From the NCBI GenBank assembly GCA_025453925.1, contig JALOPK010000366.1:1-6893 (forward strand): a stretch of 6,893 bases of DNA. The letters run 5' to 3'. The notes under the pieces are model-generated. The model was not told the origin of the DNA and ran no database searches. It saw only the letters and a list, made by a program, of their open reading frames with translations. The stretch comes from Candidatus Eiseniibacteriota bacterium. Lineage in GTDB: Bacteria > JAFGKV01. The position numbers and the translations under genes were made by a program. Positions 270 to 6,893 of the stretch are shown piece by piece (within the stretch, counting starts at the first letter, position 1; each line of letters starts with the position of its first letter).

Positions 270-1481
270 TCAAGACGGCATGTCACCCGAGACGAGGATC
301 ACCCTGGCGGGCGCGCCATCAGCTCCGGGTAGCCGTAGCGGCAGGCAGACAACCTGGTACGCGCCCGGTGCGACATGCGCAAGCACCAGTCCTTCCACTA
401 CCACTATCCCCGCCTGAAGCAGCATCCTGTGCGTTTCCTCCCCGCCCTCGTGCGGCCCGATGGAGAGGTAGTCGATGCCGACGAGGCGGATGCCACGGCC
501 GATGAGCCATCCGGCACCATCGGGAGACACACCGACGAAATCATCGTGGAATGTGGTCGCTTCGAGCAGCCCACGGATTGAGTTGTTCGTGCGAAGCAGG
601 ATCCTGCTGGCCTCGTGTGGGATTCCCGCCCGTTCCAGCCTCGCGGCATCCACAAGGGGACATCCGGCCATGTCAACGACAAACGCCCGGCCAACCAGCA
701 CGTCCAACCGCACGTCGGAGGCATCGGCACCGCTCGCGATGAAATGGAGGGGAGCGTCAATGTGGGTGCCCGCATGGGCGCACATCTCCAGCGCGGTGAG
801 ATTGACGCCGTCACCCTTGCCGAGCTGAAGTGCCCGGCGAAGTCGCACGGGTGGGTCACCCGGCCACTGCGGCATGCCTTCACGTATCGGCAAGGAGACG
901 TCTATCAAGCCCATGACCACGCTCCACCGGCGGACATCCGGGGCTTCCCCGTCCAGGGGCGGGTTTGCGAGTCCACCATCTGGCCGCACCGGCCGGGAGG
1001 CGAAGCCCAGCCAGTCAATGACGGTGGCAACGATGGCCGGCGGCGCCTGACCGGCGTCAACAGCCAGCGCATCAACAGGTTCTTCCAGGGCCTCCATCTG
1101 GCTCGTCAGTAAGCTGGCCGGCATGAAGTGCCCCGAACGATCCTTCAGACGCCGCCGGAGCACGGGGGCGTCGGCCTTCAGGTAGACTACTCGAGTGTCG
1201 CCTGCGGCCCGCAGACGGTCGCGGTGCGTCGTCCGGAGCGCTGAACACGCGAGCACCGCATCGACACTCTCCGCATCAACCCCGCGGATGACGTCCGCCA
1301 ACCTGCTGATCCACGGCTCGCGGTCGTGATCATCAAGTGGAATACCGTTTTGCATCTTGGCGACACAGCCCGGGTCATGCAAGTCATCGCCCTCGATGAA
1401 CTGCCACCCCAACCGCGCGGCCAGCATGCTGCCCACGGTGGTCTTGCCGGAGCCGGACACACCCATGACAATGACCACCAT
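270..1481 (-). CDS. Gluconate kinase - cyclase/kynurenine formamidase-like fusion protein
   Basis: This 403-residue protein has two complete domains. Residues 1-160 match gluconate kinases (ATP + gluconate to 6-phosphogluconate): Walker A GVSGSGKTT (7-15), FIEGDDLHD (29-36), the KMQNGIPLDDHDREPW segment (42-57), CSALR (79-83), and GHFMPASLLTSQMEALEEP (117-135). After a 30-residue linker, residues 191-400 match the metal-dependent cyclase family (kynurenine formamidase, isatin hydrolase): the metal-binding signature HAGTHIDAPLH (236-246), GIDYLSIGP (335-343) and the VVEGLVLAHV segment (361-370). Such enzymes usually hydrolyse cyclic amides or related substrates; the substrate here is unknown. 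The start is ATG 1481, because the kinase normally begins right before its P-loop and an in-frame stop lies about ten codons upstream; no clear Shine-Dalgarno precedes it. The protein is predicted to be cytosolic, with no signal peptide. Family calls are secure. The joint function is inference. Confidence 0.9.
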   Translation of the reverse strand: MVVIVMGVSGSGKTTVGSMLAARLGWQFIEGDDLHDPGCVAKMQNGIPLDDHDREPWISRLADVIRGVDAESVDAVLACSALRTTHRDRLRAAGDTRVVYLKADAPVLRRRLKDRSGHFMPASLLTSQMEALEEPVDALAVDAGQAPPAIVATVIDWLGFASRPVRPDGGLANPPLDGEAPDVRRWSVVMGLIDVSLPIREGMPQWPGDPPVRLRRALQLGKGDGVNLTALEMCAHAGTHIDAPLHFIASGADASDVRLDVLVGRAFVVDMAGCPLVDAARLERAGIPHEASRILLRTNNSIRGLLEATTFHDDFVGVSPDGAGWLIGRGIRLVGIDYLSIGPHEGGEETHRMLLQAGIVVVEGLVLAHVAPGAYQVVCLPLRLPGADGAPARVILVSGDMPS

Positions 1482-2192: not shown

Positions 2193-3227
2193 ATGCACCG
2201 GACGCCGAGGTTCCTGCGCGAAGACGATCTCTCCGCTCTGATCTCCGCACTGCCCGGCACGCGATGCTACCAGCCCATAGAGAAACCCACCGGAACTGAC
2301 TACGGCACGCCGTCATCCTCTCCTCCATCGCTCCGTGGAAAGCGCCCGACGTCCCCGACAAAGCCGTTCTTTCTCCCCTCTCGCGAGCGTGTTGCCGCGT
2401 TTTGGGGCTCCCGCGATCTGCCCGAGATCGAGCCGTTCAGCCTCGTTGGCCTCCGAAACTGCGATCTCCTGAGCATCCGGTATCTCGACCACGTGTTCCT
2501 CGGCGGTGTGTGCGAGGATCCATTCTACAAAGCCCACCGTGCTGCGGCGTTCCTCGTCAGCGTGGATTGCAGCCCCCCGCAGGAGAGCTGCTTCTGCACC
2601 GCCGTTGGCGGCGTTCCGTATGCTGACGGAGGGTACGATCTCAACCTCACGCCGGTGGCCGAGGGGTATCTCGTCGTAGCGGGAACGGGTGCGGGCGAAT
2701 CCGTGCTCCTCGCCACGGCCGCTTTGCTGACTGAAGCGAAGGCTGAGCTTCTGGCGGAAGGGGAGGAACTCCGTGCCCGCATGGTCGAATCGCTGAGCAC
2801 GGCGGCCCGGTCCACACCGGATCCCCAGGTGGTGGCTGAGCGCCTGGGGGGAAGCGAGGCCCACGCCTCGTGGGAGCCCTGGGCAGGCAAGTGCGTCGAA
2901 TGCGGCGCTTGCACGGCAGTGTGCCCGACGTGTCACTGCTACTACATCATCGATTCCAACGATGCCGCTCCCGGCTCGTACACGAAGATTCGAACATGGG
3001 ATAGCTGTCTGCTCGCCGAGTACGCGAGAATGGCCGGTATGGGCGCAAAGCTGACGCCACGGCCTCGCCTCAGGAGCAGACTGGCGAATCGGGTCCTACA
3101 CAAGTACGTGTACTCCTTCGCGCAGTACGGGATGTGCGGCTGCCTCGGGTGCGGGCGATGCGATGAAGCATGCCTCGGGGCCATCGCCATTCGTGACGTG
3201 GTGAACGCCGTGGGAGCATCGCGATGA
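2193..3227 (+). CDS. HydB/AsrA-like 4Fe-4S subunit (sulfhydrogenase beta / anaerobic sulfite reductase A family)
   Basis: This 344-residue iron-sulfur protein resembles HydB of sulfhydrogenases and AsrA of anaerobic sulfite reductase. Those partner an FAD-NAD(P) subunit and carry electrons between NAD(P)H and a catalytic module. The N-terminal half has the family pattern SLVGLRNCDLLSI, then YLDHVFLGG and CFC. The C-terminal half has two cluster motifs: C234, C237, C240 and C244 followed by PTCHC (C247, C249), and the GCLGCGRCDEAC motif (C315, C317, C320, C323, C327). I chose ATG 2193 over an in-frame ATG at 1917: GGAGG (2184-2188) precedes it, the family N-terminus begins here, and the promoter at 2106-2133 would fall inside the longer version. 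There is no signal peptide or membrane segment, so it is cytoplasmic. Its stop overlaps the next start (ATGA), suggesting translational coupling with its HydG-like partner. Confidence 0.92.
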   Translation: MHRTPRFLREDDLSALISALPGTRCYQPIEKPTGTDYGTPSSSPPSLRGKRPTSPTKPFFLPSRERVAAFWGSRDLPEIEPFSLVGLRNCDLLSIRYLDHVFLGGVCEDPFYKAHRAAAFLVSVDCSPPQESCFCTAVGGVPYADGGYDLNLTPVAEGYLVVAGTGAGESVLLATAALLTEAKAELLAEGEELRARMVESLSTAARSTPDPQVVAERLGGSEAHASWEPWAGKCVECGACTAVCPTCHCYYIIDSNDAAPGSYTKIRTWDSCLLAEYARMAGMGAKLTPRPRLRSRLANRVLHKYVYSFAQYGMCGCLGCGRCDEACLGAIAIRDVVNAVGASR

Positions 3228-4023
3228 CTCTCAGGGCCAATCCCTACGAACCCATCGCCGCGCGGCTGGCGGATGTCGTTGACGAAACCCCCACGATCCG
3301 AACGTTCGTGTTCACGCCGGAGGAGCCGATCCCGTTCGTGTCGGGCCAGTTCGTGCAGCTTTGCCTGCCCGGGATCGGCGAAGCCCCGTTCACTCCCTCG
3401 AGCTCGCCGCTCGAACCGAACCGACTCGAGATCACCATCCTGCGAACGGGTGCGGTCACCGAGGCGCTTCATCGCCTCGAGCCCGGCGCCGAGTTGGGAA
3501 TCCGTGGCCCGCTGGGCAAGGGCTACCCTGTGGAGAAACTGCAGGGCAAAGACATTCTCGTCGTGGGTGGAGGGGTCGGACTCGCGCCGTTGCGAGCCTT
3601 GCTGTATCACGTATTTCACGTGCGGGACCAGCTCGGTCGAATCGAGATCAAGTACGGTTCCCGGTCGCCTGACGAGTTGCTCTTTCGGCGCCAGTACGAT
3701 CAGTGGTCCGCGCTCCCGGGGGTACGGTTCTCGGCGACGGTTGACGTGCCCCATCCGCAGTGGACGGGGCGGACGGGCGTGGTCACGGTGACCTCGCGAA
3801 CTGTCTGGTCTTCTCCTGCGGCCCCAGCATCATGTTCAAGTTCGTAGTGCAGAAACTGCTGGAGATGGGGGTAAAGCCGGAGCAGATCTACCTGTCCATG
3901 AACAGGAGGATGAGCTGCGGGATCGGAAAATGCGGCCGGTGCAACATAGGTCCGTTCTACCTCTGCAAAGACGGACCAGACATGAACTACGCAAAGATCA
4001 TGGGGTATCCCGATGTCTTCTGA
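3224..4023 (+). pseudogene. HydG/AsrB-like FAD/NAD(P)-binding [2Fe-2S] reductase, frameshifted
   Basis: The gene is read in two frames: 3224 to about 3790, then about 3790 to 4023. Residues 1-189 give the FAD-binding half (GEAPFTPSSSP at 52-62, RGPLGKGYPV at 94-103) and the NAD(P)-binding GGGVGLAPLRALL (115-127). The second frame supplies the missing C-terminus: SCGPSIMFKFVVQ, then the [2Fe-2S] motif CGIGKCGRC and the CKDGPD segment. Unrepaired, the first frame ends at 3847 after 18 foreign residues and loses the cluster domain. Relative to the family pattern I recall, about seven residues between GVVTV and DLANCLVF are also absent, so a deletion of about 19-22 bases fits better than one lost base. 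GGGAG (3212-3216) precedes ATG 3224. In related enzymes this subunit exchanges electrons with NAD(P)H. It could be a true mutation or a sequence error. The family is near certain; whether it is inactive is not. Confidence 0.88.
3781..3793. repeat. Short perfect palindrome at the frameshift junction
   Basis: GGTCAC (3781-3786) and GTGACC (3788-3793) are exact reverse complements around G3787. The reading-frame change of the HydG-like gene falls inside this palindrome. Small dyads favour replication slippage and assembly collapse, so its position may explain the lesion. Confidence 0.7.
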
Positions 4024-5668
4024 CACAAGGGCCCCGCGCGACGGGTGGAGCCGCTGCCTGTTCTGTTCGTTGCAGTGCCCCTTGGGGATCCGCGACGCCG
4101 GCGGAGGGTGGCTCGAAACCGTGTTTCCGATGGACGGGGGCCTGTGTGCCCGGGGCTTGTGCGTCGGGGAGCTGGCCGCCCGCGTGCGTCGCGGCACGGC
4201 ACATGACGGCCCTACCGGACGGAATCTGATCCTGGACGAAGGAATCGCGGAGGCGGGGAGCCGCCTCCGCGGGGCGTCGGGTGTTGACATCATCGTGGAC
4301 GGCAACCATCGCGGGGAGGTGCTGTCGCTCGCCGCGGGCCTTGCCGCAGCCCATCCCGCGCGGATCAGAAGCTTCGTCGCGCTCCCCGCTGAGGATTTGC
4401 TGGTGCTGGCCCACGCGTGGGCCAGTGGAGCCACGACCGCCGGCATCGAGGTCCTCGACGACGTGGATGGTCTCCTGGTGGTCGGCGACCCGTTTTCGAG
4501 CAACCCCCGCAGCGCGAAACCGATTCTGGCCTTCAAGCGACGGAATCGCCGAGCACCCCTGGCTGTGATCGACAGCACCCCTCGGCGTACCGCGGTTTTT
4601 GCCACTCACCCGGTAATCGTCGAACCCGGCAGGGTGCCGGCCGCCGTCGCCTGCGCGGTCCCGGCTGCCGCCGCGGCCGTGATCCGGCAATCGCCTCGTG
4701 AGGTCGATCCCACCGGCGCTCTGGAACGGGCGCTCGTCGCTCTGGGAAAGTGCGGCCGAGTAGGCGTGATCATTGCTTCGCAGCCCGGCCGCGGTTGTTC
4801 GTGGCCGTCCGCCGCCTACTACGCCGGTCTCTTGGCGCGTTCACAGGGAACGAAGCTCGGGGTGCTGACGCAGTACGGCAATGCGCGAGGGGCCGCGCGG
4901 TTCATCGCCTCCGGGATGTTGCAGCCCGTGGGACATCTCACCTCGATCGCCCCCGAGGGCCGCGCAGCCGTGGTCATCGGCGAACGGGATTCATGTCTGC
5001 CGACCGGGGACATCGCCGACTGGGCGGCCCGGGCGTCAGTCGTGATCCGCGGGGGGTTCAGCGCGGAGTCCGACGCCGGGACCCTCAGCTTTCCGGGGGT
5101 GGGGTTCTTTGAGGACGAGGGTTCGATCCTCACGCCGGAAGAACAGTGGGAGTGGGTTCCTGCGGCATTATCGCCCCCCGTGGGAATCCCTACGACTCCC
5201 GTCTTGCTGCGCGCGATTCTGGAGGCCGGGGGGTACGGCGTTGACAGCGAGCGGCCGGTGCTCCCGGAGTATCCGGAGCTGGTGACGCCTCCGGCACTTG
5301 AGGAGCGCCAGGCCGTGGAAGGGGCGGGTCCGCTCCGGGGCATCCTTGCCGCCGACCCTGAACAATTCGTCGATGGTCAGCTCACCGGCCTCACCAGCCT
5401 GCTCGGCTCCCGGATCCCCAGCGTGCTCATGGCCACGGCCGACTGCGCCCGCTACGGAGTCGCTGATGACTCGATTGTGACGCTCACCACGGACTTCGGA
5501 GTGTCATCCGCCACCGTGCGTTCGTGCGGCTACCAGCCGTCCGGTGTCGTGGCCATTTCGAACACCAATGGCGAGACCAAGACGCTCTTTGGGTGGGAGC
5601 TGTGCGGCGGGCTCCCCGTAGCCATGCCGTCCAGGGTTACGATCGGGCCCGCAGGGAGCGCGACATGA
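4013..5668 (+). CDS. NuoG-like / molybdopterin-oxidoreductase-like iron-sulfur subunit, probably non-catalytic
   Basis: This 551-residue protein has the fold signature of bis-MGD oxidoreductases. It has an N-terminal [4Fe-4S] motif C15-x2-C18-x3-C22 with C45 in GGLCARG, a nucleotide-fold segment (LLVVGDPFSSNP at 154-165, AVIDSTPRRTAVFA at 184-197, IVEPG at 202-206), a domain-III-like stretch (SVVIRGGFSAESDAGTLSF at 342-360, EDEGSI), and a C-terminal dinucleotide-binding-like end (ADCARYGVADDSIVTLTTDFG, 476-496). It is much shorter than formate dehydrogenase alpha subunits, and I see no catalytic Cys/Sec loop between C45 and residue 154. It may thus work as a structural or electron-relay subunit like NuoG; a distant FwdB-like protein is the alternative. 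The start ATG 4013 has GGGGT at 4002-4006 and overlaps the previous gene by 11 bases. It is cytoplasmic and co-translated with its neighbours. Whether it binds molybdopterin cannot be told. Confidence 0.8.
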   Translation: MSSDTRAPRDGWSRCLFCSLQCPLGIRDAGGGWLETVFPMDGGLCARGLCVGELAARVRRGTAHDGPTGRNLILDEGIAEAGSRLRGASGVDIIVDGNHRGEVLSLAAGLAAAHPARIRSFVALPAEDLLVLAHAWASGATTAGIEVLDDVDGLLVVGDPFSSNPRSAKPILAFKRRNRRAPLAVIDSTPRRTAVFATHPVIVEPGRVPAAVACAVPAAAAAVIRQSPREVDPTGALERALVALGKCGRVGVIIASQPGRGCSWPSAAYYAGLLARSQGTKLGVLTQYGNARGAARFIASGMLQPVGHLTSIAPEGRAAVVIGERDSCLPTGDIADWAARASVVIRGGFSAESDAGTLSFPGVGFFEDEGSILTPEEQWEWVPAALSPPVGIPTTPVLLRAILEAGGYGVDSERPVLPEYPELVTPPALEERQAVEGAGPLRGILAADPEQFVDGQLTGLTSLLGSRIPSVLMATADCARYGVADDSIVTLTTDFGVSSATVRSCGYQPSGVVAISNTNGETKTLFGWELCGGLPVAMPSRVTIGPAGSAT

Positions 5669-6165
5669 CCCACGACCCCGCGGGCCTGACCACACGACGG
5701 GTCGTGCTGGATATCGACCTGTGCATCGACTGTAAGAGCTGCGCGGCGGCATGCTACTTCCATCACCACAACATGCCCATCGTCGGCTTCGGATCGACGC
5801 CAGCTGCAACGCTCCCCGTCATCTGCCGCCAATGCGAGTCGCCCGGCTGTGTGGACGCGTGCCCCAATGAGGCCATGGCCCGGGATGAGAACGGCGTGGT
5901 CTCGCGCTCACTTTTCCGATGCACGGGGTGCATGAGCTGTGTGATGGGGTGCCCGTTCGGCATCATCACCGAACGGCTTCAGGGGAATCATATCCCCAAA
6001 TGCGATCTCTGTGAGCACCGGCTCCTCGCAGGTGTTGAGCCCTGGTGCGTCGCCAGTTGCTCCAGCGGCGCGCTCAGACTTCTGGAGCCGGACAAGGCTG
6101 AAGCCGCCGGATTGGTTCTCCTCGGAGGACGCATCGCCGGCTCACGGCCCTGGGGTCGGAGGTAG
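5665..6165 (+). CDS. 16-cysteine ferredoxin-like electron-transfer subunit (HycB/DmsB type)
   Basis: This 166-residue protein has four cysteine quartets, enough for four [4Fe-4S] clusters: C20, 23, 26, 30; C54, 57, 62, 66; C86, 89, 92, 96; and C113, 116, 128, 132. The second (CRQCESPGCVDAC) and third (CTGCMSCVMGC) are typical of HycB, HyfA, DmsB, PhsB and FdhB. Those subunits wire a molybdopterin-type or other large subunit to a membrane partner. Here it sits exactly between the NuoG-like gene and the NuoH-like gene, consistent with that bridging role. The start ATG 5665 overlaps the upstream stop as ATGA and has AGGGAG at 5653-5658; a longer in-frame version starting at 5524 lies inside the previous gene and is rejected. 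There is no Tat or Sec signal, so it faces the cytoplasm. Family assignment is secure; the partner is inferred. Confidence 0.93.
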   Translation: MTHDPAGLTTRRVVLDIDLCIDCKSCAAACYFHHHNMPIVGFGSTPAATLPVICRQCESPGCVDACPNEAMARDENGVVSRSLFRCTGCMSCVMGCPFGIITERLQGNHIPKCDLCEHRLLAGVEPWCVASCSSGALRLLEPDKAEAAGLVLLGGRIAGSRPWGRR

Positions 6166-6170
6166 TGACC

Positions 6171-6893
6171 GTGCAGGATGTGCTTCTCTCGTTGGCGCTG
6201 CTGGTGGGCGCCACCATCATGAGCGCCGTCCTCGGGCTCCTGACGCGGTACATAGACCGCAAAGTAACGGCGAGAGTGCAGTGGCGTGTGGGCCCCCCGT
6301 GGTATCAGCCCTTCGTTGACATCCTGAAGCTCCTGGGCAAGGAAACCGTGCTCCCCCGCCTGGCAAAGGGCACTCTCTTCCTCGCCGCTCCGGTGATCGG
6401 GTTCGCCGCGGTCTCGGTCGGGGGGGCCATGGTGTGGAGCCACGCGATAGGTTTCGGGCCGGAGTTCGTCGGCGACCTCATCGTTCTGGTGTACATCCTG
6501 ACCATACCCTCCCTCATGCTGGTTCTCGGTCCCGGCGGAAGCGGCAATCCGTACGGCGCCGTGGGCGCGAGTCGGGAGATGAAACTCCTGCTCGCCTATG
6601 AGCTGCCCTTCGTCTTGGCATTGGTGGTTGCCCTCGTCCATACCGGCGGCAGCCTCCGCATTGAGGACATAGTCGCGGGCCAGGCGCAACACGGCGTCGT
6701 GCTCGCCAGCATAAGCGGAGTGCTCGCCGCACTGGTGGCGCTGGTGTGTGTTCAGGCCAAGATGGGCCTGGTTCCTTTTGATATGGCCGAAGCCGAAACG
6801 GAACTCATGGGGGGCATCCTCGTGGAATACTCCGGCCCCCCCCTGGCCATGATCCTTCTGACCAGGACCATGCTCTACGCGATCCTCCCGATG
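6171..6893 (+). CDS. NuoH/HycD/EchB-like membrane subunit, 3' end beyond window
   Basis: Open to the window edge, this gives 241 residues without a stop, of perhaps 300-330. It is the membrane anchor that joins the peripheral arm to the ion-pumping arm in complex I, formate hydrogenlyase and energy-converting hydrogenases. Signatures: RVQWRVGPPWYQPFVDILKL (35-54) followed by KE (57-58), GASREMKLLLAYELPF (132-147), and VPFDMAEAETELMGGILVEY with SG (201-222). The FDMAEAETE wording is closer to HycD/EchB-type subunits than to NuoH of complex I. Hydrophobic helices fall near 4-24, 68-90, 102-120, 145-158, 175-194 and 223-240. I chose GTG 6171 because GGAGG (6158-6162) sits 8 bases upstream; GTG 6165, two codons earlier, is too close to it. 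The previous stop ends at 6165, so the genes are nearly contiguous. No gene symbol is given, since hydrogenase and dehydrogenase versions cannot be separated here. Confidence 0.93.
   Translation, partial: MQDVLLSLALLVGATIMSAVLGLLTRYIDRKVTARVQWRVGPPWYQPFVDILKLLGKETVLPRLAKGTLFLAAPVIGFAAVSVGGAMVWSHAIGFGPEFVGDLIVLVYILTIPSLMLVLGPGGSGNPYGAVGASREMKLLLAYELPFVLALVVALVHTGGSLRIEDIVAGQAQHGVVLASISGVLAALVALVCVQAKMGLVPFDMAEAETELMGGILVEYSGPPLAMILLTRTMLYAILPM

What the first reader, a model, noticed from the sequence alone, without database searches (positions are those of the whole stretch)
2193..6893. Mixed-module redox operon: HydB/HydG pair + NuoG-like + 16-Cys ferredoxin + NuoH/HycD
The sequence shows five contiguous, overlapping or nearly abutting genes that join a sulfhydrogenase/sulfite-reductase-type NAD(P)H module to a complex I / group 4 hydrogenase membrane subunit through a molybdopterin-fold protein and a polyferredoxin. 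Formate hydrogenlyase has the ferredoxin and HycD but not HydBG; soluble sulfhydrogenase has HydBG but no membrane arm. The inference is a membrane-bound, NAD(P)H-linked complex that could pump ions, possibly in the neighbourhood of Ehr (energy-converting hydrogenase-related) complexes.
Basis: partly seen in the sequence, partly recalled or inferred. Interest (0 to 1): 0.7.

Follow-up and report, generated by a model that had tools for sequence, protein, structure and literature searches.

The report
Membrane hydrogenase with NADH-linked module
The window holds the front half of an operon for a membrane-bound, probably ion-pumping nickel-iron hydrogenase whose electrons most likely come from or go to NADH; one earlier paper listed the same gene set as enigmatic, and here it proves to be a conserved family of about 17 genes found in many uncultured bacteria.

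Summary
The contig ends inside nuoH. A sister genome, and two more contigs of the window's own genome, show what follows: NuoB, NuoC, NuoD and NuoL, Mrp antiporter subunits and a HycF-like ferredoxin. The NuoD homologue keeps both CxxC nickel-ligand pairs, so this is a true group 4 [NiFe] hydrogenase and not an Ehr complex. HydB-HydG sits upstream in 27 of 27 testable loci of one well-supported large-subunit clade, against 5 of 17 loci outside it. The NuoG-like subunit, found only in some members, lacks the catalytic residues of formate dehydrogenase in all ten sequences, so it is probably an electron relay or scaffold. An independent clue to NADH: a gene for the NADH sensor Rex and/or Rex operators precede the operon in 13 of 25 loci, though not in the window's genus. 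Best reading: a Mrp-linked, NADH-coupled, membrane-bound [NiFe] hydrogenase; the direction of electron flow is unproven. The gene set was reported in 2019 in Saganbacteria as enigmatic (PMC6349859), so this is a new member of a known but uncharacterised kind.

The parts
2193..3227 (+). hydB/asrA-like gene: [4Fe-4S] subunit of the sulfhydrogenase/anaerobic sulfite reductase NAD(P)H module
   Evidence: ShyB 1e-41, HydB 1e-40, AsrA 4e-32; closest solved chain 9nez_B, sulfhydrogenase 1 beta, 3e-68 with the family profile; cluster cysteines conserved in nine homologues
3224..4024 (+). hydG/asrB-like gene (FAD, NAD(P)-binding, [2Fe-2S]), frameshifted: first frame to about 3793, then another frame from about 3790 to 4024
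   Evidence: 22-nt deletion against L002:7584-8405; the two halves hit HydG-type models separately; intact in relatives; closest solved chain 9nez_C, 4e-53 for the L002 homologue
4013..5668 (+). mopB: NuoG/FdhA-like MopB-fold subunit with an N-terminal [4Fe-4S] site (C15, C18, C22, C45) and no catalytic Cys/Sec, His or Arg
   Evidence: Family profile matches FdhA chains at 8e-51 and NuoG; fold search matches FdhH and NuoG; active-site columns
5665..6165 (+). HycB/CooF/DmsB-type polyferredoxin, 16 Cys in four groups (four [4Fe-4S] clusters expected)
   Evidence: TIGR02951 4e-23; Fer4_11 4e-18; translation
6165..6893 (+). nuoH/hycD/mbhM-like membrane subunit, cut by the contig end; the C-terminus is on G000:C421
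   Evidence: PF00146 3e-48; C-terminal piece followed by nuoB-nuoC-nuoD-nuoL on C421

Best explanation
[quoted passage not shown] HydG (FAD, [2Fe-2S]) and HydB ([4Fe-4S] clusters) exchange electrons with NAD(P)H, most likely NADH. The electrons pass, directly or by way of the single [4Fe-4S] site of the non-catalytic MopB subunit, to the 16-Cys HycB-like ferredoxin, then through the HycF/NuoI-like and NuoB-like subunits to the NiFe site in the NuoD-like large subunit, where protons are reduced to H2 (or H2 is oxidised). NuoH, the NuoL-like subunit and the Mrp subunits couple the reaction to Na+/H+ movement. Shown from sequence: gene content, gene order, NiFe ligands, cluster ligands, loss of the Mo-enzyme active-site residues, Mrp subunits, and Rex genes and operators in many family members. 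Inferred: assembly into one complex, electron route, NADH over NADPH, ion specificity, and direction. Direction is the weakest step. I favour disposal of fermentative NADH as H2, either at low H2 pressure or driven by the ion gradient; the reverse (H2 oxidation to NADH with ion export) is possible.
For: Conserved 17-gene order hydB-hydG-mopB-fd-nuoH-B-C-D-L-mbhD/E-mrpB-C-D-E-F-G-nuoI across families wherever the contig is long enough. The rest of the operon exists in the window's own genome: nuoH-B-C-D-L on C421 and mrpD on C471, plus a full-length hypE. Both nickel-ligand motifs are present in all intact large subunits of the clade; the closest solved chain is the P. furiosus MBH large subunit 6cfw_L, 8e-108, then HycE. 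HydB/HydG are closest to sulfhydrogenase 1 beta/gamma. hydB-hydG lies upstream of nuoD on the same strand in 27 of 27 testable loci of one clade (support 100/99), against 5 of 17 outside it. A Rex gene stands upstream of hydB in 8 of 25 loci. All six exact TTGTG-N8-CACAA sites in 845,972 bases lie 11-130 bp upstream of the rex or hydB homology, with 0.8 expected. HycI, HypA and HypB genes follow the operon in L041. MBH-type and antiporter domains MbhD, MbhE, MnhB, MNHE and Proton_antipo_M are present.
Against: No biochemistry exists; one paper states that no subgroup 4g enzyme has been characterised (PMC7886697). The window's own hydG is frameshifted, which is either an assembly error or a broken copy. 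No Rex gene or operator lies near the window or its sister locus, so the NADH clue comes from relatives only. NADH (about -320 mV) to H2 (-414 mV) is uphill at standard conditions, so the reaction needs low H2, ion influx, or co-oxidation of ferredoxin.
Confidence: 0.68

Rival explanations
1. A ferredoxin-coupled Mrp-Mbh hydrogenase in which HydBG is a side port: it either couples NAD(P)H and ferredoxin together (confurcation), or works as a separate ferredoxin:NAD(P)H oxidoreductase made from the same operon.
For: HydDB tentatively lists 4g as ferredoxin-coupled. The operon holds two ferredoxin-type subunits that could take electrons from free ferredoxin. Confurcation would solve the energetics.
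Against: HydBG is present in every testable locus of the clade and is homologous to the NAD(P)H-binding beta/gamma subunits of a hydrogenase. No second flavin subunit of a known bifurcating type was seen among the operon genes.
Confidence: 0.27
2. The complex runs in uptake mode: H2 oxidation reduces NAD+ and the downhill electron flow exports Na+/H+, a hydrogen-driven respiration without quinone.
For: H2 to NAD+ is downhill at high H2. Group 4 enzymes can be reversible. The gene set is direction-neutral.
Against: Rex generally lifts repression when NADH is high (established knowledge), which fits NADH disposal better. Published genome studies of related phyla describe fermenters.
Confidence: 0.22
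3. A formate hydrogenlyase or another oxo-acid:H2 lyase, with the MopB subunit as an active Mo/W dehydrogenase.
For: The profile's nearest solved relatives are formate dehydrogenase alpha subunits, and a HycB-like ferredoxin follows it, as FdhF partners HycB in FHL.
Against: The catalytic Cys/Sec, His and Arg positions are lost in all ten sequences, one [4Fe-4S] Cys is Asp in four, one member lacks the C-terminal domain, and 19 related operons lack the subunit.
Confidence: 0.04
4. An energy-converting hydrogenase-related (Ehr) complex with no NiFe site.
For: Mixed complex I and Mrp gene content; the window itself does not reach the NuoD gene.
Against: Both CxxC ligand pairs are present in the window's own genome (C421) and in all intact relatives; maturation genes HycI, HypA and HypB are adjacent in L041.
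Confidence: 0.02
5. The copy in this window is decaying and not functional, because hydG is frameshifted.
For: 22-nt deletion breaking the reading frame.
Against: All other frames are open and well conserved, including nuoD at 89% identity to the sister genome. The assembly edges of this draft genome are imperfect, so an assembly error is as likely.
Confidence: 0.2

Closest known systems
Enigmatic group 4 [NiFe] hydrogenase locus of Saganbacteria RX5A (Matheus Carnevali et al. 2019, PMC6349859)
   Same: Same parts list: group 4 hydrogenase, Mrp subunits, an unclassifiable molybdopterin oxidoreductase, cooF, asrA, asrB
   Different: Gene order and residues are not given in the main text (supplement not readable here); no tested function. 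The active-site loss, conserved linkage and Rex control are added here.
P. furiosus MBH (group 4d, 6cfw)
   Same: Closest solved large subunit (8e-108); Mrp-type antiporter arm; NiFe ligands
   Different: MBH takes electrons from ferredoxin directly and has no HydBG, MopB or HycB-like subunits; the large subunits fall in different clades
E. coli formate hydrogenlyase (FdhF-HycBCDEFG, 7z0s/7z0t)
   Same: MopB-fold subunit + HycB + HycF-type + HycD arrangement; the NuoI-like subunit ends in a Cys quartet like HycF
   Different: The MopB subunit lacks the Mo active-site residues; a HydBG module is present; full Mrp arm; no formate dehydrogenase activity expected
P. furiosus sulfhydrogenase 1 (group 3b, 9nez)
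   Same: HydB and HydG subunits are homologous
   Different: Soluble, with a group 3 large subunit; no membrane arm
Respiratory complex I
   Same: NADH module, NuoG-like subunit and NuoBCDHIL core joined to an antiporter arm
   Different: NADH module is HydBG rather than NuoEF; NiFe site retained; Mrp subunits instead of NuoAJKMN
Mrp-linked group 4g hydrogenases of Cloacimonadota and Omnitrophota (PMC8542988)
   Same: Group 4 [NiFe] hydrogenase with Mrp
   Different: HydBG linkage not mentioned in the passages read; 4g is a heterogeneous bin (PMC7886697); assignment of this clade to 4g was not run here

Membership tests
Group 4 [NiFe] hydrogenase | L1 and L2 Ni-ligand motifs (CxxC pairs) in the large subunit | tested here: met
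   RVCGICSASH and DPCYSC in G000:C421; equivalent motifs in all intact relatives of the clade
Group 4 [NiFe] hydrogenase | NuoB-type small subunit, NuoC-like and NuoH-like partners in one operon | tested here: met
Group 4 [NiFe] hydrogenase | NiFe maturation genes in the genome | tested here: met
   HypE above its cut-off in G000, G001 and G002; HycI, HypA and HypB next to the operon in L041
Mrp-linked membrane-bound hydrogenase | MrpB/C/D/E/F/G and MbhD/E-type subunits in the operon | tested here: met
   complete in the sister genome and relatives; in the window's own genome MrpD was found on a separate contig, C471
HydDB subgroup 4g | Classification of the large subunit by HydDB | not testable with these tools
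   HydDB is not available; the literature places Mrp-linked Omnitrophota and Cloacimonadota enzymes in 4g
Ehr complex | Loss of the NiFe ligands | tested here: not met
   ligands present
Formate hydrogenlyase | Catalytic Cys/Sec, His and Arg in the MopB subunit | tested here: not met
   A/G/T or gap, E/N/S or gap, and T/P/F/L at these positions
Respiratory complex I | NuoE/NuoF FMN module and loss of the NiFe ligands | tested here: not met
   no NuoEF in the operon; ligands retained
Group 3b sulfhydrogenase | HydBG together with a soluble group 3 large subunit (HydA) | tested here: not met
   HydBG homology met, but the linked large subunit is group 4
Anaerobic sulfite reductase AsrABC | AsrC siroheme subunit beside AsrAB | tested here: not met
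   no AsrC-type gene between hydG and nuoI in the completed operon
NADH-coupled enzyme | Demonstrated NAD(P)H oxidation or reduction | not testable with these tools
   only homology of HydBG and Rex linkage in relatives

The most novel reading that the evidence does not exclude
A whole clade of Mrp-linked group 4 [NiFe] hydrogenases in uncultured bacteria is not ferredoxin-coupled, as usually assumed, but is an NADH:H+ oxidoreductase that pumps or consumes Na+/H+. It is built from HydBG plus an MBH-type core, is under Rex (NADH/NAD+) control, and in one subset carries a non-catalytic NuoG-like subunit, making it a parallel route to the complex I layout.
Probability: 0.45. Interest if true: 0.72.

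Novelty: new member of a known kind. Interest (0 to 1): 0.5.

Why it matters
Group 4g-type hydrogenases occur in many anaerobic dark-matter lineages and their electron donor is listed as undetermined or putatively ferredoxin. A conserved HydBG module plus Rex control turns this into a testable claim: NADH-linked, ion-coupled H2 turnover. If true, it changes energy budgets for many fermenters and gives a living example of a NiFe hydrogenase with an NADH module, a non-catalytic MopB subunit and an Mrp arm, close to the layout proposed for the ancestor of complex I.

Tried and rejected
Ehr and formate hydrogenlyase readings were tested and rejected on residues. L003 (a Flavobacteriaceae contig) was a weak hit with no hydrogenase genes among its open frames, rejected as chance. 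Many weak MopB-profile hits, several of about 540 aa, turned out to be pieces of FdhA split at a likely selenocysteine codon, NuoG-type genes or unrelated genes. Rex operators in the window and sister locus: none found. No exact overlap joins the end of C435 to the start of C421. The AlphaFold model of MopB is moderate (mean pLDDT 64, N-terminal cluster domain poor), so only its overall fold is used. The large-subunit tree does not settle whether the MopB-bearing operons are one clade.

Full report
Observation. The window is the whole of contig C435 of a draft genome (3.9 Mb, 502 contigs, 82% complete). Open-frame listing and translation confirm five + strand genes from 2193 to the contig end. 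Families: HydB/ShyB/AsrA; HydG/ShyC/AsrB (FAD- and NAD-binding domains and a DHODB-type [2Fe-2S] domain); a protein without its own Pfam or NCBIfam hit at 1e-3; a DmsB/HycB-type ferredoxin with 16 cysteines; and NuoH. One correction: the HydG gene changes frame at about 3793. Aligned with the sister genome (L002) the window lacks 22 nt there, and the HydG profile matches the two halves in different frames. Whether this is an assembly error or a real lesion cannot be told from the sequence.

What follows downstream. The nearest relative, a MAG labelled Candidatus Fermentibacteria (JAFGKV010000193.1, L002; by length and position the same contig as G001:C240), carries the whole operon: hydB, hydG, mopB, ferredoxin, nuoH, nuoB, nuoC, nuoD, nuoL, an MbhD/MbhE fusion, mrpB, mrpC, mrpD, mrpE, mrpF, mrpG and a NuoI/HycF-like ferredoxin. 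The window's own genome has the continuation on other contigs: the end of nuoH, then nuoB, nuoC, nuoD and most of nuoL on C421, and mrpD on C471. It also has hypE. The NuoD homologue on C421 reads RVCGICSASH and DPCYSC, the two nickel-ligand motifs. All nine large subunits aligned keep them, and so does every intact member of the wider clade. The closest solved large subunit is that of P. furiosus MBH, then HycE of E. coli formate hydrogenlyase. The Ehr placement is therefore wrong: this is a [NiFe] hydrogenase by sequence.

How widespread it is. A profile of the MopB protein was run over 386 genomes sampled mostly from the same domain. It found full or clear matches in ten, the window's genome included; the other nine carry the same gene order as far as their contigs reach. 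A profile of the large subunit over the same genomes found about 40 strong matches. Neighbourhoods of this strong set and of 17 weaker matches with a usable nuoD were fetched. In the strong set, hydB-hydG lies upstream of nuoD on the same strand in 27 of 27 loci where the contig reaches far enough: 8 with mopB between hydG and the ferredoxin, and 19 without it. Among the 17 weaker, outside loci, 5 have HydBG nearby. Two of these group with HycE, two have a nuoD match too short to place, and one sits beside a soluble hydrogenase. In the tree the strong set is one branch with support 100/99, apart from MbhL and HycE (the bootstrap had not fully settled). HydBG is thus a core part of this hydrogenase clade, and the NuoG-like subunit is an optional addition whose number of origins the tree leaves open.

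The NuoG-like subunit. Its profile matches formate dehydrogenase alpha subunits best, then NuoG. A moderate AlphaFold model (mean pLDDT 64) matches FdhH, other formate dehydrogenases and complex I NuoG. Aligned with a canonical FdhA found upstream of a related operon, all ten family members lack the catalytic Cys/Sec, the His beside it and the Arg of the FdhA motif; they hold Ala/Gly/Thr or a gap, Glu/Asn/Ser or a gap, and Thr/Pro/Phe/Leu. Three of the four [4Fe-4S] cysteines are invariant; the other is Asp in four members. One member (G147) lacks the C-terminal domain. I read it as an electron relay or scaffold without a working molybdenum site, as in NuoG. That no cofactor is bound is an inference.

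Evidence on the electron donor. HydB and HydG are closest to the beta and gamma subunits of sulfhydrogenase 1, an NADP-coupled type of enzyme (established knowledge; HydDB table). An independent clue is regulatory. A Rex gene, whose product senses NADH/NAD+, stands upstream of hydB in 8 of 25 loci with upstream DNA. All six exact TTGTG-N8-CACAA Rex operators in 845,972 bases of fetched DNA lie 11-130 bp upstream of rex or hydB homology, where about 0.8 would be expected anywhere. Three more loci have one-mismatch sites. Gene or site together cover 13 of 25 loci. Against this, the window and its sister locus show neither, and the Rex-like gene elsewhere in the window's genome is only 28% identical to the query. 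The NADH inference therefore holds for the family and reaches the window by homology. The operator consensus follows published work (for example TTGTGAAW4TTCACAA, PMC2883068, abstract).

Mechanism. The most economical scheme is NAD(P)H to FAD and [2Fe-2S] in HydG, to HydB clusters, to the HycB-like ferredoxin (through or beside MopB), to the HycF-like subunit, to the NuoB-like subunit, to NiFe, with ion movement through NuoH, NuoL and the Mrp subunits. The NuoI-like subunit ends in two CxxC pairs, like the Cys quartet reported at the C-terminus of HycF (PMC9474812). NADH-to-H2 is uphill at standard conditions, so the direction and the sign of ion coupling are open, and co-oxidation of ferredoxin is a serious rival.

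Comparison with the literature. Matheus Carnevali et al. [quoted passage not shown] That is the same parts list. HydDB lists 4g as undetermined, possibly ferredoxin-coupled (PMC5037454), and a later paper splits 4g into several lineages and says none has been characterised (PMC7886697). The searches made here found no paper that states the conserved HydBG linkage, the missing Mo active site or the Rex control, but only open-licence papers could be searched and only a few were read.

Verdict. The finding is a new member of an already noticed but uncharacterised kind; the family-wide HydBG linkage, the lost MopB active-site residues and the Rex control are the useful additions.

Noticed in passing
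window 270-1481 (-): One 403-aa frame joins a gluconokinase-type N-terminus (TIGR01313, 1e-44) to a cyclase/arylformamidase-type C-terminus (PF04199 5e-23; TIGR03035 2e-45, below its cut-off): an unusual fusion, or two genes run together.
   Followed up: no
L011 5080-5734 (G005:C11): A nucleotidyltransferase-like frame and a HepT/HEPN-like gene (weak type VII toxin-antitoxin match) sit inside the hydrogenase operon between nuoC and nuoD.
   Followed up: partly
L108 (G057), L109 (G132), L110 (G322), L112 (G047): HydB-HydG also occur beside other group 4 large-subunit operons; in G057 and G132 the large subunit groups with HycE, and G322 and G047 also have a MopB gene nearby: possibly another HydBG-[NiFe] combination.
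   Followed up: partly
L096 and L100 (G340, G210), upstream of hydB: FdhA-like genes and an FdhD-like gene lie just before rex-hydB-hydG, suggesting formate metabolism beside the hydrogenase in these genomes.
   Followed up: no
L056 (G032) 4214-8136: A soluble-looking FdhA split at a likely selenocysteine codon is followed by HydB and HydG, an NAD(P)-linked formate dehydrogenase layout.
   Followed up: no
G000:C421 (L010) 1-53: The first ~50 bases do not match nuoH of the sister genome and carry a stop, a sign of an imperfect contig end in this draft assembly.
   Followed up: partly
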